Source of the DNA: an uncultured Paracoccaceae bacterium
Lineage (GTDB): Bacteria; Pseudomonadota; Alphaproteobacteria; Rhodobacterales; Rhodobacteraceae
Length of the DNA stretch: 64,000 nucleotides
Direction of reading: 5' to 3'
Assembly (NCBI GenBank): GCA_947503965.1
Contig: CANNFU010000002.1
Location: 496,001 to 560,000, forward strand
Part shown: one piece after another, positions 58,035-60,903 of the stretch
Numbering within the stretch: position 1 is the stretch's first letter
Layout: each line of letters opens with the position of its first letter
The notes under the pieces: generated by a model
Database searches by the model: none
What the model saw: only the letters and a program-made list of their open reading frames with translations
What the model was told of the DNA's origin: nothing
Made by a program: the position numbers and the translations under genes

Positions 58035-58517
58035 TTAAACTCGCTTGTACATCACATGGGCCGCGACCATGCCCTGTTGCGGATGGTCAAATGCATCGGG
58101 AATTGTGCCGATGGTTTCAAACCCAAGCCGATGCCAGAGCTTGACCGCGCCGGCGTTGCTGGCCAGCACAAAGTTGAACTGCATCGCCTTGTAGCCCAGC
58201 GCTCGCGCTTCGGTCTGGCTGTGTTCGCACATTTGTGCCGCCAGCCCCTGCCCGCGTGCCATGGGCGCGACAATGTATCCGCAATTGCAGATATGCGCGC
58301 CGCCGCCGGGTTGGTTTGTCTTGATATAGTATGTGCCAAGAATTCCTTCCTGACCTTCGGCAACATAGGTGGCGGCGGGTTGGGCCATCCAATAGGCGCG
58401 CGCGTCGTCTTTGCTGATATGCGGATCAACGGCATATGTGTCCCCCGCCCGAAACACATCGCGCAGTAGCGGCCAGATGGCATCGTAATCCGCCGCCTCT
58501 GCCCGCCGGATGATCAC
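58035..58517 (-). CDS. GNAT-family N-acetyltransferase
   Basis: 160 residues. The acetyl-CoA loop is VAPMARGQGLAAQMCEHS (R-x-x-G-x-G/A), followed by the beta-5 region AMQFNFVLASNAGAVKLWHRLGFETIG. The substrate is unknown. The start overlaps the mrp stop by 4 bp (ATGA), so the two are coupled. Confidence 0.9.
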   Translation of the reverse strand: MIIRRAEAADYDAIWPLLRDVFRAGDTYAVDPHISKDDARAYWMAQPAATYVAEGQEGILGTYYIKTNQPGGGAHICNCGYIVAPMARGQGLAAQMCEHSQTEARALGYKAMQFNFVLASNAGAVKLWHRLGFETIGTIPDAFDHPQQGMVAAHVMYKRV

Positions 58518-59587
58518 GCCATGCCGCCTGCGATGAACCGTTTGGCCAGTTGGCGATAGGCATCCGCCATCGGACTGTCGCCCGCCGCGATGGGTGTGCC
58601 GCCATCCCCGGCAAGGCGGGTCTCAAGGTCGATGGGCAGCGTGCCCAGCAGTGGGACGCCGATTCGTTCGGCCTCTGCCGCCACACCGCCATGGCCGAAG
58701 ATATGTGCCTCGTGCCCGCAATTGGGGCAATGGAAGGTCGACATGTTTTCGATTAGACCAAGAACGGGTGTATTGAGGTTGTTGAACATGTCCAGCGCCT
58801 TGCGCGCGTCGATCAGCGCCACATCCTGCGGGGTGCTCACCACGATGGCCCCCGTCAGCTGGGTTTTCTGGCACAGCGTCAGTTGCACATCACCAGTGCC
58901 GGGGGGCAGATCGACGATCAGCACGTCCAGTTCGCCCCATTGGACCTGCCCCAGCATCTGTTGCAGCGCACCCATAAGCATTGGGCCGCGCCAGACGACC
59001 GCCTTGTCCGGGTCCACCATGAAGCCGATGGACATCACCGTCACACCATGGGCCTGCAATGGAATGATGATTTTGCCGTCCGGGCTACCGGGGCGTTTGT
59101 TCACACCCATCATGCGCGGCTGGCTGGGGCCGTAGATATCTGCATCAAGCAGGCCAACGCGCCGCCCTTCGCGGGCCAGCGCCACGGCCAGGTTGGATGA
59201 CACTGTTGATTTGCCGACACCCCCTTTGCCGGACCCAATGGCAAGGATGCGATCCACGCCGGAGACTTTGGCGGGTCCGGCCTGTGGCGTCGGATGGCGC
59301 CCGATCTTCAACGACGGAGGTTCAGGCGCTTTCGGAGCAGGCCCATGGGCAGTCAGCACGACGGAGGCGCTATCGACACCCGGCAGACTGCTGACCAGCT
59401 GTTCGGCGGCGCGACGTATCCCTTCCATCTTGGCCGCTTCACCCGGATCGGCAGCTTCGATCACGAAACGGACCGTTACGCCGTCAATATTCAGCGCCCG
59501 CACCATGTCGCGCGAGACCAGATCATCCCCGCCCGGCAATGTGAGTCGCGACAGCGCGCCTAAAATTTCATCGCGGGTGACGGGCAT
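58514..59587 (-). CDS. mrp: Mrp/ApbC-family P-loop ATPase, Fe-S carrier
   Basis: 357 residues. An N-terminal MIP18/DUF59-type domain (about 1-90) precedes the ATPase domain with deviant Walker A GSGKGGVGKSTVSSNLAVALA, and the cluster-binding C-x2-C is in FHCPNCGHEAHIFGHGG. It carries and transfers 4Fe-4S clusters. ATG 59587 follows AGAGG; 59593 would be a TTG start. Confidence 0.95.
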   Translation of the reverse strand: MPVTRDEILGALSRLTLPGGDDLVSRDMVRALNIDGVTVRFVIEAADPGEAAKMEGIRRAAEQLVSSLPGVDSASVVLTAHGPAPKAPEPPSLKIGRHPTPQAGPAKVSGVDRILAIGSGKGGVGKSTVSSNLAVALAREGRRVGLLDADIYGPSQPRMMGVNKRPGSPDGKIIIPLQAHGVTVMSIGFMVDPDKAVVWRGPMLMGALQQMLGQVQWGELDVLIVDLPPGTGDVQLTLCQKTQLTGAIVVSTPQDVALIDARKALDMFNNLNTPVLGLIENMSTFHCPNCGHEAHIFGHGGVAAEAERIGVPLLGTLPIDLETRLAGDGGTPIAAGDSPMADAYRQLAKRFIAGGMA

Positions 59588-59714
59588 GGGCAAACCTCTT
59601 TTTCAAAAAAGACCAAATTTCACCCAACATCTGGCACCTTTTGGGCAAAGCGCAAGTGTTCGCCGACCACCGCACAGAAATGCGACAGATTGATGACGTT
59701 AGGTCAGCAATGCT

Positions 59715-59731
59715 TATGCATTTTCTGCATA
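59715..59731. promoter_or_regulatory. Dyad TATGCA-N5-TGCATA upstream of the DUF1127 gene
   Basis: A perfect 6-bp inverted repeat with TTTTC spacer, flanked by further C/G symmetry, lies 100 bp before the DUF1127 start and 128 bp before the divergent mrp start. It could be an operator. A TTGACC at 59738 might be a -35 box, but no convincing -10 was paired with it. Confidence 0.3.
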
Positions 59732-59831
59732 GCAGCGTTGACCAAAGAGCTATTGTGCAACTGCAGCATTATCCTACATGTTGGTGGCAAGAGGGCGGAA
59801 CACCGGCCCATGATTGAGATGAGATGAGCAG

Positions 59832-60047
59832 ATGACATATAACACAGACACAGGCTTTGCAGGTTTCTCGCTTGCCCAACGCTTTGGAGCGTTCCGGGCA
59901 GAGCTGGCAGAAAAGGCGGCAAAGCGCAAAACATATCGCACGACGCTGAACGAACTAAGCGAGCTTTCTGACCGTGACTTGAACGATTTGGGTCTGAGCC
60001 GGTCGATGATCAAGGGTATCGCCCTGGAAGCCGCTTACGGCAAATGA
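59832..60047 (+). CDS. DUF1127 small protein, CcaF1-like RNA-binding protein
   Basis: 71 residues, basic. The DUF1127 core is TLNELSELSDRDLNDLGLSRSMIKGIA at the C-terminus. In Rhodobacter sphaeroides the homologous gene (CcaF1, RSP_6037) lies directly upstream of the CcsR sRNAs, is cotranscribed with them under heat-shock sigma factors, and its product binds RNA and affects sRNA maturation. The same order here (array starting 13 bp after the stop) supports that assignment. Confidence 0.88.
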   Translation: MTYNTDTGFAGFSLAQRFGAFRAELAEKAAKRKTYRTTLNELSELSDRDLNDLGLSRSMIKGIALEAAYGK

Positions 60048-60054
60048 ATTCACG

Positions 60055-60361
60055 GATCGGGTCTGCCGCCTCCTCCCTTTAGGCAGATCTGAACGACCCT
60101 GCGCTCTTTCCTCCTCCCTGAGCAATGGGTCATCAATAAGGTGGCGGTATCCACCTCCTCCCGGGTACCGCCACTTTATGACACCAGTTTCGGAACCGCC
60201 CACCTCCTCCCGGGTTGGAACCGATCATACCGCTAGCTGCGCTCACCTCCTCCCGAGCGACGCCAAGCGAGGAAGCGCCCCGCTCTTCTCCTCCCAGAGC
60301 AGGCGGGCGCTGATAATAAGAACGGTCATGCCCACCTCCTCCCGGGCATGGCCGTTTTTTT
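60055..60361 (+). ncRNA. Cuckoo/CcsR sRNA array, seven CTCCTCCC hairpins
   Basis: Seven consecutive hairpins each expose CCTCCTCCC in the loop, starting at 60069, 60110, 60154, 60203, 60246, 60287 (variant TCTCCTCCC) and 60335. Stems include TCTGCC/GGCAGA, GCTC/GAGC with outer ACCC/GGGT, a 14-bp ATAAGGTGGCGGTA stem (one G-U), CGCTC/GAGCG, AGCGCCC/GGGCGCT with GCTCT/AGAGC, and ACGGTCATGCCC/GGGCATGGCCGT. The fourth has only a short AACC/GGTT stem. The last ends in seven T, serving as terminator. The loop is like an anti-Shine-Dalgarno sequence. Rhodobacter CcsR1-4 have four units and act in stress and C1/central metabolism. Confidence 0.88.
60322..60361 (+). terminator. Terminator hairpin ending the cuckoo RNA array
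   Basis: A 12-bp stem (ACGGTCATGCCC with GGGCATGGCCGT, one G-U pair) is followed by seven T. The loop contains the seventh CCTCCTCCC motif. The convergent gene at 60367 ends 6 bp away, so it may also terminate that gene from the other side. Confidence 0.85.
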
Positions 60362-60366
60362 ATGGC

Positions 60367-60903
60367 TTAAGCTCGTTTAATCAGCGTCCAGATATGGCGA
60401 CGCCTAGATGGGCTGGATGGATTACTGTGAACCAATTCGTATCCCAAGACCTCGGCCCGGGTATCAATTGCAATCATGACCTTTTTCCATGATCCGGCGA
60501 ATGTCTGCAGCGGCACAGCCAGCCGTTCGCCATTTTGCAGCAAGACACTTAAAACGTCATCGGCAACGTCATCACCGGTTATCTCGACCGTAAACTCTTC
60601 AATCTGCGACCAGCGGCACGTTCGTCTGTCCTGAAGAGGCTCGCCATGCGTGCACTCCAGCGTCACACCGTCCGCATCAATCACGATCCAGGATCGCCCA
60701 ATCGGGGAGCGCTTCCAGATCACGAACGCACCCACAAAAAGAAGCGCTGCAAAAAGGTAGTTCGGCAAGAGCGATGGTTCCTGTTCGGCGTTTGCGGCAG
60801 AGTAATGGCCCAACAAAAGAACGCCACCTGCAAGTAAAGCGAGCGAACAAGCGATGAAGTAACCCCGATCAAATCGCGATGGGCCAAAAGTGACTGGTGG
60901 CAT
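60367..60903 (-). CDS. Small membrane protein with PH-like soluble domain, unknown function
   Basis: 178 residues. Two hydrophobic helices (about 14-34 and 47-63) are followed by a strand-rich domain beginning SWIVIDADGVTLEC and RTCRWSQIEEFTVEI, a pattern seen in bacterial PH-like (bPH) domain proteins. No firm family call. It is convergent with the cuckoo RNA array. Confidence 0.6.
   Translation of the reverse strand: MPPVTFGPSRFDRGYFIACSLALLAGGVLLLGHYSAANAEQEPSLLPNYLFAALLFVGAFVIWKRSPIGRSWIVIDADGVTLECTHGEPLQDRRTCRWSQIEEFTVEITGDDVADDVLSVLLQNGERLAVPLQTFAGSWKKVMIAIDTRAEVLGYELVHSNPSSPSRRRHIWTLIKRA

What the first reader, a model, noticed from the sequence alone, without database searches (positions are those of the whole stretch)
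59832..60361. Cuckoo RNA locus expanded to seven hairpins behind a CcaF1-like gene
Seven consecutive hairpins carry a CTCCTCCC loop directly after a DUF1127 gene; six have the exact CCTCCTCCC and one TCTCCTCCC. The Rhodobacter sphaeroides locus has four (CcsR1-4). Stems differ almost completely between units while the loop is constant, so each may be processed to a separate sRNA with a shared anti-Shine-Dalgarno and a different specificity stem. The family is known, but this copy number and the degenerate fourth and sixth units are worth study.
Basis: partly seen in the sequence, partly recalled or inferred. Interest (0 to 1): 0.7.

Follow-up and report, generated by a model that had tools for sequence, protein, structure and literature searches.

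The report
Seven-hairpin anti-Shine-Dalgarno RNA array
Behind a small DUF1127 gene lie seven RNA hairpins that share one loop sequence predicted to cover the ribosome-landing sites of certain transport and alcohol-oxidation genes; seven hairpins at the same spacing stand in 42 of 52 genomes read from the genus, so this is a normal-sized member of a known RNA family and not an expansion, while across related genera the hairpin number rises with the number of matching landing sites.

Summary
The seven hairpins are real (window 60057-60359): six loops CCTCCTCCC, one TCTCCTCCC, behind a 71-aa DUF1127 gene like R. sphaeroides ccaF1. They are not an expansion. R. sphaeroides has four CcsR sRNAs; CcsR1 (RSs0680a) has two stem-loops, so probably about eight hairpins. 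In the window's genus 42 of 52 loci counted have seven hairpins at fixed offsets. At 140 loci from other genera, exact-motif hairpins number 0 to 26, median 6. Units 4 and 6 are not degenerate: unit 4's loop is exact in 49 of the 49 loci where it was found, unit 6's T variant recurs in 40 of 50. Stems keep pairing while letters change (51 of 91 pairs changed on both sides), so they look like scaffold. The loops complement GGGAGGAG, which precedes ATG at 17 places outside the array; the site is kept in malE-like, PQQ methanol/ethanol dehydrogenase and flavocytochrome c orthologues, not in an ABC permease. New: over 140 genera hairpin number rises with the number of GGGAGGAG-ATG sites (rho 0.48; 0.37 between nearest relatives after GC correction); a control with other Shine-Dalgarno motifs is missing. 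Transcription, processing and repression are untested.

The parts
59715..59738 (.). conserved block upstream of the gene (TATGCATTTTCTGCATAGCAGC), role unknown
   Evidence: alignment of 51 upstream regions of the genus
59753..59779 (+). candidate RpoH-type promoter: TTG 59753-59755 and TACAT 59775-59779 (inferred)
   Evidence: conserved in 51 aligned genus upstreams; no sigma-70-type match; TTG and A-12 are the key RpoHI/RpoHII positions in R. sphaeroides (PMC3441632 passages); spacing is one base shorter than that model
59832..60047 (+). DUF1127 gene, 71 aa, CcaF1-like
   Evidence: Pfam PF06568 48.8 bits, cut-off 23.3; R. sphaeroides CcaF1 is also 71 aa (PMC10253847 passage)
60057..60092 (+). 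hairpin unit 1, loop CCTCCTCCC 60069-60077
60095..60131 (+). hairpin unit 2, loop CCTCCTCCC 60110-60118
   Evidence: its two helices fit the alignment least well (72% and 58% of cells paired)
60136..60179 (+). hairpin unit 3, loop CCTCCTCCC 60154-60162
60190..60224 (+). hairpin unit 4, loop CCTCCTCCC 60203-60211
   Evidence: loop exact in 49 of 49 loci where found
60231..60269 (+). hairpin unit 5, loop CCTCCTCCC 60246-60254
60274..60311 (+). hairpin unit 6, loop TCTCCTCCC 60287-60295
   Evidence: TCTCCTCCC in 40 of 50 genus loci
60318..60359 (+). hairpin unit 7, loop CCTCCTCCC 60335-60343, with the run of T that makes it the likely terminator

Best explanation
Seven hairpins with CCUCCUCCC-type loops follow the ccaF1-like gene; they are likely transcribed with it from a predicted RpoH-type stress promoter, would be cut by RNase E with CcaF1 into one or more small RNAs, and are predicted to pair through the loops with GGGAGGAG Shine-Dalgarno sequences and so to block ribosome binding on uptake and periplasmic-oxidation mRNAs. 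Shown here: the array, its fixed seven-unit layout in the genus, stem pairing kept by compensatory change, loop conservation, and matching ribosome sites conserved in orthologues of three predicted targets. Inferred from relatives: stress promoter, co-transcription, RNase E and CcaF1 maturation, Hfq binding, RBS blocking. The stems are taken to be scaffolds that hold the loop open; the unit number would set how many anti-Shine-Dalgarno loops one transcription event supplies. The last step rests on a correlation across genera.
For: Array, folds and controls. Genus: 42 of 52 loci with seven hairpins, 7 with six, 2 with five, 1 with eleven. Pairing: 51 of 91 pairs with a change on both sides, 231 such cells against 74.4 in shuffles (0 of 500 reach it) and at most 77 in slid versions; 89.0% of cells paired against at most 44.2% slid (45 of the 52 loci). 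Units are old orthologues: flank identity of the same unit between genomes 0.43-0.88, between units of one genome 0.33, random 0.25 (42 loci). Targets: GGGAGGAG 3-10 nt before ATG 18 times in the genome (one is the array's own antisense strand) against 1 for the reversed pattern; 14 of the other 17 open ORFs of 90 aa or more, 6 of them transport proteins, others a PQQ methanol/ethanol-family dehydrogenase, a PQQ sugar dehydrogenase and a flavocytochrome c subunit. Conservation: 8-nt match in 9 of 9 malE-like orthologues scored, 7 nt or more in 8 of 8 PQQ dehydrogenase and 15 of 17 flavocytochrome orthologues, against 8 of 377 control ORFs (these counts include the window's genome, where the site was found). 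Dose: hairpin number against GGGAGGAG-ATG sites, rho 0.48 over 140 genera; 39 of 55 nearest-relative pairs agree in sign; partial 0.37 after GC difference. Family biology: NfeR1's three aSD loops act redundantly on mRNA start regions (PMC7143759 passage); CcsR1-4 are co-transcribed with ccaF1 and matured by RNase E (PMC10253847 passages).
Against: No expression data. An ABC permease that matches in the window's genome does not keep the site (4 of 20 orthologues with 7 nt or more; 5 of 30 with weaker relatives), so single-genome matches mislead. GGGAGGAG also contains GGAGG, so strong ribosome binding alone could keep these sites (16S-tail duplex -10.8 to -12.1 against -13.6 to -16.3 kcal/mol for the loop in the three kept targets). 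The cross-genus correlation falls to 0.28 with local GC included, its lowest bins are not monotonic (0-1 hairpins 3.64 sites per Mb, 2-5 hairpins 3.00), and only the reversed pattern, no other Shine-Dalgarno motif, served as control. Unit 2's helices fit poorly in the alignment.
Confidence: 0.7

Rival explanations
1. The array acts as one uncut multivalent RNA: several loops per molecule would engage one or more mRNAs or proteins at once, and separate processing is not needed.
For: Unit order and near-uniform spacing (medians 42, 44, 49, 42, 41, 49 nt) are fixed in the genus, without the two-hairpin dyads seen elsewhere; linkers are only 1-10 nt.
Against: In R. sphaeroides the precursor is cut by RNase E into CcsR1-4 (PMC10253847, PMC7866481 passages).
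Confidence: 0.25
2. The hairpins serve ccaF1 in cis: they stabilise or terminate its mRNA and, as CcaF1 and RNase E substrates, feed back on CcaF1 level; the loop is conserved as a protein-binding site, not for mRNA pairing.
For: Gene and array are linked in all 52 genus loci counted; unit 7 ends in a run of T; CcaF1 binds RNA and affects CcsR maturation (PMC10253847 passages).
Against: It does not explain why the loop is an exact Shine-Dalgarno complement, nor the conserved GGGAGGAG ribosome sites and the cross-genus trend; aSD loops of the related NfeR1 act in trans (PMC7143759 passage).
Confidence: 0.12
3. The GGGAGGAG ribosome sites are simply strong Shine-Dalgarno sequences, more frequent in GC-rich genomes that also happen to carry longer arrays; the loops act on other targets or on other sRNAs.
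For: GGGAGGAG contains GGAGG; the correlation weakens to 0.28 with local GC; sponge RNAs with CU-rich partner sRNAs exist in Caulobacter (PMC12559287 passages).
Against: Partial 0.37 between nearest relatives after GC difference, and 21 of 28 pairs of similar GC agree in sign; the loop pairs better than the 16S tail in the three kept targets, the reverse of the control ORFs.
Confidence: 0.2
4. One reading: a locus recently expanded from four to seven units, with decaying fourth and sixth units.
For: None found; one genus member (L070) has eleven hairpins, whose last four repeat the spacing of units 4-7.
Against: Seven in 42 of 52 genus loci; units 4 and 6 conserved; paralogous units no longer alike.
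Confidence: 0.03

Closest known systems
CcsR1-4 / ccaF1 locus of Rhodobacter sphaeroides (Rfam RF02791 for CcsR1)
   Same: 71-aa DUF1127 protein followed by aSD-loop hairpins; CCUCCUCCC loops; likely stress promoter.
   Different: Two-hairpin sRNA units there; here seven hairpins at near-uniform spacing, and the CcsR1 model does not reach its cut-off (22.6 of 65.3 bits).
ar14 / NfeR1 sRNAs of Rhizobiales (Rfam RF02344)
   Same: Three hairpins with the identical loop; ar14 passes its cut-off on units 5-7; redundant aSD loops that silence transport mRNAs (PMC7143759 passage).
   Different: Stand-alone genes with a sigma-70 promoter (PMC10746234 passage), not the 3' UTR of a DUF1127 gene.
Cuckoo RNA family (Reinkensmeier and Giegerich 2015, not held; name and 2-4 hairpins recalled)
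   Same: Adjacent hairpins with CCUCCUCCC loops and variable stems, often with a short DUF1127 gene (CIN1 locus, PMC10253847 passage).
   Different: Seven hairpins, beyond the recalled 2-4 per RNA; arrays up to 26 exist in relatives.
AbcR sRNAs (ar15)
   Same: CU-rich aSD motifs and ABC-transporter targets (PMC7143759 passage).
   Different: Other loop motifs and architecture; no match among the Rfam hits listed.

Membership tests
Cuckoo / CcsR-like aSD hairpin RNAs (broad family) | adjacent hairpins, each with CCUCCUCCC in the loop | tested here: met
   seven of seven fold with the motif in the loop, six exact and one TCTCCTCCC
Cuckoo / CcsR-like aSD hairpin RNAs (broad family) | stems vary in sequence but keep pairing | tested here: met
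   51 of 91 pairs with two-sided changes, 0 of 500 shuffles as high
Cuckoo / CcsR-like aSD hairpin RNAs (broad family) | linked to a short DUF1127 gene | tested here: met
   Pfam PF06568 48.8 bits, 71 aa, 9 nt upstream of the first stem
Cuckoo / CcsR-like aSD hairpin RNAs (broad family) | 2 to 4 hairpins per RNA (recalled) | tested here: inconclusive
   seven in one unbroken array; how many per mature RNA is unknown
ar14 (RF02344) | score at or above the gathering cut-off 58.8 | tested here: met
   60.0 bits for units 5-7; 55.6, below it, for units 1-3; unit 4 in neither match
CcsR1 (RF02791) | score at or above the gathering cut-off 65.3 | tested here: not met
   22.6 and 20.4 bits; the window's genome has no match in the family-wide run, which used stricter filters
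CcsR1-4 locus | two-hairpin dyads (short/long alternating spacing) | tested here: not met
   genus spacings 42, 44, 49, 42, 41, 49 nt; perfect alternation in 49 of 101 arrays of other genera, 8.2 expected
CcsR1-4 locus | RpoHI/RpoHII promoter | tested here: inconclusive
   conserved TTG and TACAT in 51 upstreams; no binding or start-site data
CcsR1-4 locus | co-transcription, RNase E/CcaF1 maturation, Hfq binding | not testable with these tools
   reported for R. sphaeroides only

The most novel reading that the evidence does not exclude
Anti-Shine-Dalgarno hairpin arrays are a heritable dosage dial. Each lineage tunes the number of identical loops (0 to 26 seen) to the number of its mRNAs that carry a GGGAGGAG ribosome site, by duplicating one-, two- or three-hairpin blocks, while the stems drift freely as long as they pair; the window's genus has frozen the dial at seven.
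Probability: 0.35. Interest if true: 0.75.

Novelty: new member of a known kind. Interest (0 to 1): 0.5.

Why it matters
The locus itself is ordinary for its family. What matters is the survey it opened: the array is a modular RNA whose unit number varies from 0 to 26 between genera while the loop stays fixed, and that number rises with the count of matching ribosome sites. If this holds against other Shine-Dalgarno motifs, it makes a general question testable: whether a regulatory RNA's dose is tuned to the size of its target set by adding and losing whole binding units. The conserved malE-like, PQQ dehydrogenase and flavocytochrome c sites give a short list of targets to test.

Tried and rejected
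Expansion from four units: rejected by the genus and family surveys. Degenerate units 4 and 6: rejected. Coding reading: a mechanical ORF 60178-60492 overlaps units 4-7, but genus unit spacings vary by lengths that are not multiples of three. Sigma-70 promoter: none found. ABC permease L246 as a conserved target: rejected. Three of 17 GGGAGGAG-ATG sites give frames of 2-14 aa and are not genes. First protein alignment A1 held one wrong-strand row (L058) and was replaced by A2. Rows dropped: L082 (contig fragment, 2 lenient hairpins) from the genus count; G023 and G024 not fetched, G002 without the gene; L070 from the unit table; 7 of 52 loci (L053, L055, L067, L069, L070, L076, L231) from alignment A3; L224-L229 from the family count (picked by pattern; L224 and L225 no gene found, the others 9, 4, 5 and 2 hairpins); malE-like L330 (unclear start) and PQQ relatives L269-L272 (N-termini do not align) from the site count. 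Some family zeros are artefacts of picking a paralogous DUF1127 gene: L135 (G147) has 0, while another contig of that genome carries an array. L099's count of 18 includes four one-mismatch hits; its exact count is 14. The ORF control still held the target genes and was replaced. The Billenkamp 2015, Gruetzner 2021 and cuckoo 2015 papers are not held. Searches for published array counts listed none that I recognised, but the library lacks these key papers, so I claim no priority.

Full report
What is there. The window carries a 71-aa DUF1127 gene (59832-60047; Pfam PF06568, 48.8 bits) and, 9 nt after it, seven hairpins up to 60359. Six loops read CCTCCTCCC and the sixth TCTCCTCCC, as reported. 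With the motif held unpaired the hairpins have 10-17 enclosing pairs; shuffled flanks match the real energies in 0 to 14 of 1000 trials per unit; the whole stretch folds at z = -7.8. The unconstrained ensemble leaves six motifs open at 0.98-1.00 and unit 6 at 0.66. The array is the only tight cluster among 53 CTCCTCCC sites of the genome. The Rfam family ar14 passes its cut-off on units 5-7 (60.0 bits) and misses it on units 1-3 (55.6); CcsR1 stays far below (22.6, 20.4 of 65.3).

It is not an expansion. A passage of PMC3927594 says that RS0680a, the former name of CcsR1 (PMC5036791 passage), has two stem loops, each with the motif. The Rfam CcsR1 model has two hairpins, and a relative with four CcsR1-model matches has eight hairpins (G166/L184). 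That each of the four has two stem-loops is recalled from the Billenkamp 2015 abstract, which is not held. Of 56 genus genomes searched, 55 have the gene; of 52 loci counted, 42 have seven hairpins, 7 six, 2 five and 1 eleven, with spacings of 42, 44, 49, 42, 41 and 49 nt (medians). Named relatives with seven include Yoonia sp. F2084L (L001). In the family, 245 of 248 genomes (one per genus) have a DUF1127 match; at the 140 best-hit loci that I read, taken from the top of the score list, exact-motif hairpins number 0 to 26, median 6, and 68 loci have seven or more.

Architecture elsewhere. Of 101 arrays with four or more exact hairpins, 49 alternate perfectly between short (median 39.5 nt) and long (68 nt) spacings, against 8.2 expected when the spacings are shuffled: these are CcsR-like dyads. 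L131 has 26 hairpins built of three-hairpin blocks: flank identity is 0.81 at lag 3, 0.71 at lag 6 and 0.41 at lag 1, which looks like stepwise tandem duplication. The window's genus shows no such repeat: flank identity between units of one genome is 0.33 (random 0.25), while the same unit in other genomes is 0.43 to 0.88 alike (42 loci). The seven units are old and individually inherited.

Loops and stems. In 51 genus loci unit 4's loop is exact in 49 of the 49 where the unit was found, unit 3 in 48 of 51, unit 7 in 49 of 51, unit 5 in 47 of 50, unit 2 in 43 of 46 and unit 1 in only 30 of 49; unit 6 reads TCTCCTCCC in 40 of 50 and CCTCCTCCC in 10. So the fourth unit is among the best kept, the sixth has a stable variant, and the first is the loosest. 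In the alignment of 45 of the 52 loci, 51 of 91 pairs change on both sides, with 231 such cells against 74.4 in shuffles and at most 77 in slid versions; 89.0% of cells pair against at most 44.2% slid. RNAalifold on its own finds 35 of 58 pairs with two-sided change; it does not recover unit 2's hairpin and joins part of unit 2 to unit 6. Unit 2's helices (72% and 58% paired) and unit 6's inner helix (66%) fit least, in part because MAFFT shifts those loops. The pattern says that the stem must pair but may change its letters, which argues against stems as target-specific sequences; units 3 and 7 have well-kept stems too, so a further role for these two stays open.

What the loop would bind. 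The loop is the complement of GGGAGGAG(G). In the window's genome this octamer lies 3-10 nt before ATG 18 times, once on the array's own antisense strand, against 1 for the reversed pattern. Of the 17 others, 14 open frames of 90 aa or more: MalE-like binding protein, an ABC permease, a TRAP small permease, two further solute-binding proteins and a DctP protein (whose match starts at profile position 78, so its start may be internal); a PQQ dehydrogenase of the methanol/ethanol family; a PQQ sugar dehydrogenase; a flavocytochrome c sulfide-dehydrogenase-type subunit; a luciferase-like monooxygenase; two AMP-binding enzymes; two unknowns. I tested four for conservation. The 8-nt site is kept in 9 of 9 malE-like orthologues scored, and 7 nt or more in 8 of 8 PQQ dehydrogenase and 15 of 17 flavocytochrome orthologues; leaving out the window's own genome, in 8 of 8, 7 of 7 and 14 of 16. 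The ABC permease fails (4 of 20). Control ORFs from the same loci reach 7 nt in 8 of 377 cases; their starts are the first ATG of each frame, so some are wrong. In the three kept sets the loop pairs more strongly than the 16S tail (-14.8, -13.6 and -16.3 against -12.1, -10.8 and -11.8 kcal/mol), the reverse of the control mean (-4.3 against -5.0). The 16S tail used, apart from its first letters, was confirmed in the genome. These targets fit what is reported: CcsR1-4 affect C1 metabolism (PMC8307010, PMC5036791 passages), and NfeR1's redundant aSD loops act on transport mRNAs (PMC7143759 passage). Strong ribosome binding alone is not excluded.

Dose and targets across genera. I counted GGGAGGAG-N3-10-ATG in 248 genomes and set the counts against exact hairpin numbers at 140 loci. 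Spearman's rho is 0.48; hairpin number is unrelated to the reversed-pattern count (0.06); with genome size and reversed-pattern count held, the partial value is 0.43, or 0.44 after removing 59 sites that come from the arrays' own antisense strands, and 0.28 when local GC is added. Among 69 nearest-relative pairs (by the DUF1127 protein), 55 differ in hairpin number and 39 of these agree in sign; rho of the differences is 0.45, 0.37 after GC difference; for pairs within 3% GC 21 of 28 agree. Genomes with a CcsR1-model match have 4.95 sites per Mb (204 genomes), those without 3.64 (43). It is a lead, not a proof.

Expression. No sigma-70-type promoter is seen. A TTG at 59753 and TACAT at 59775 lie in a block conserved in 51 genus upstreams, compatible with RpoHI/RpoHII promoters, in which TTG and A-12 matter (PMC3441632 passages). 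In R. sphaeroides the ccaF1-CcsR1-4 operon has such a promoter, and the precursor is processed by RNase E with CcaF1 (PMC10253847 passages). For the window all of this is inference.

Verdict. The most interesting outcome is the family-wide pattern of unit number against ribosome sites, which I rate at 0.35 as a true dosage relation. All papers cited were seen as passages only.

Noticed in passing
L131 (G220:C1:334647-336756): Array of 26 exact-motif hairpins behind the DUF1127 gene, in three-hairpin blocks of about 140 nt with similarity falling with distance; the largest of the 140 family loci read.
   Followed up: partly
L070 (G010:C7:56498-58810): Only genus member with eleven hairpins; the spacing of the last four repeats that of units 4-7, as if that block with the terminator hairpin had been duplicated.
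   Followed up: no
window 59715-59738: Strongly conserved, partly palindromic block TATGCATTTTCTGCATAGCAGC upstream of the candidate promoter in the genus; possible regulator site.
   Followed up: no
window 60189-60192 and around: TTCG just before unit 4 is invariant in all 45 aligned loci although it is not loop; no explanation.
   Followed up: no
L172 (G175:C12:283000-286000): CTCCTCC pairs lie upstream, not downstream, of the best DUF1127 hit; another gene or a rearranged locus.
   Followed up: no
G281 contigs C60, C79, C90, C127: CcsR1-model matches on several contigs of one genome, so dispersed extra copies of two-hairpin units.
   Followed up: no
window 58514-59593 (-) and 60367-60903 (-): Neighbours: a Mrp/NUBPL-type iron-sulfur P-loop ATPase upstream on the other strand, and a protein without Pfam match converging from downstream.
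   Followed up: partly
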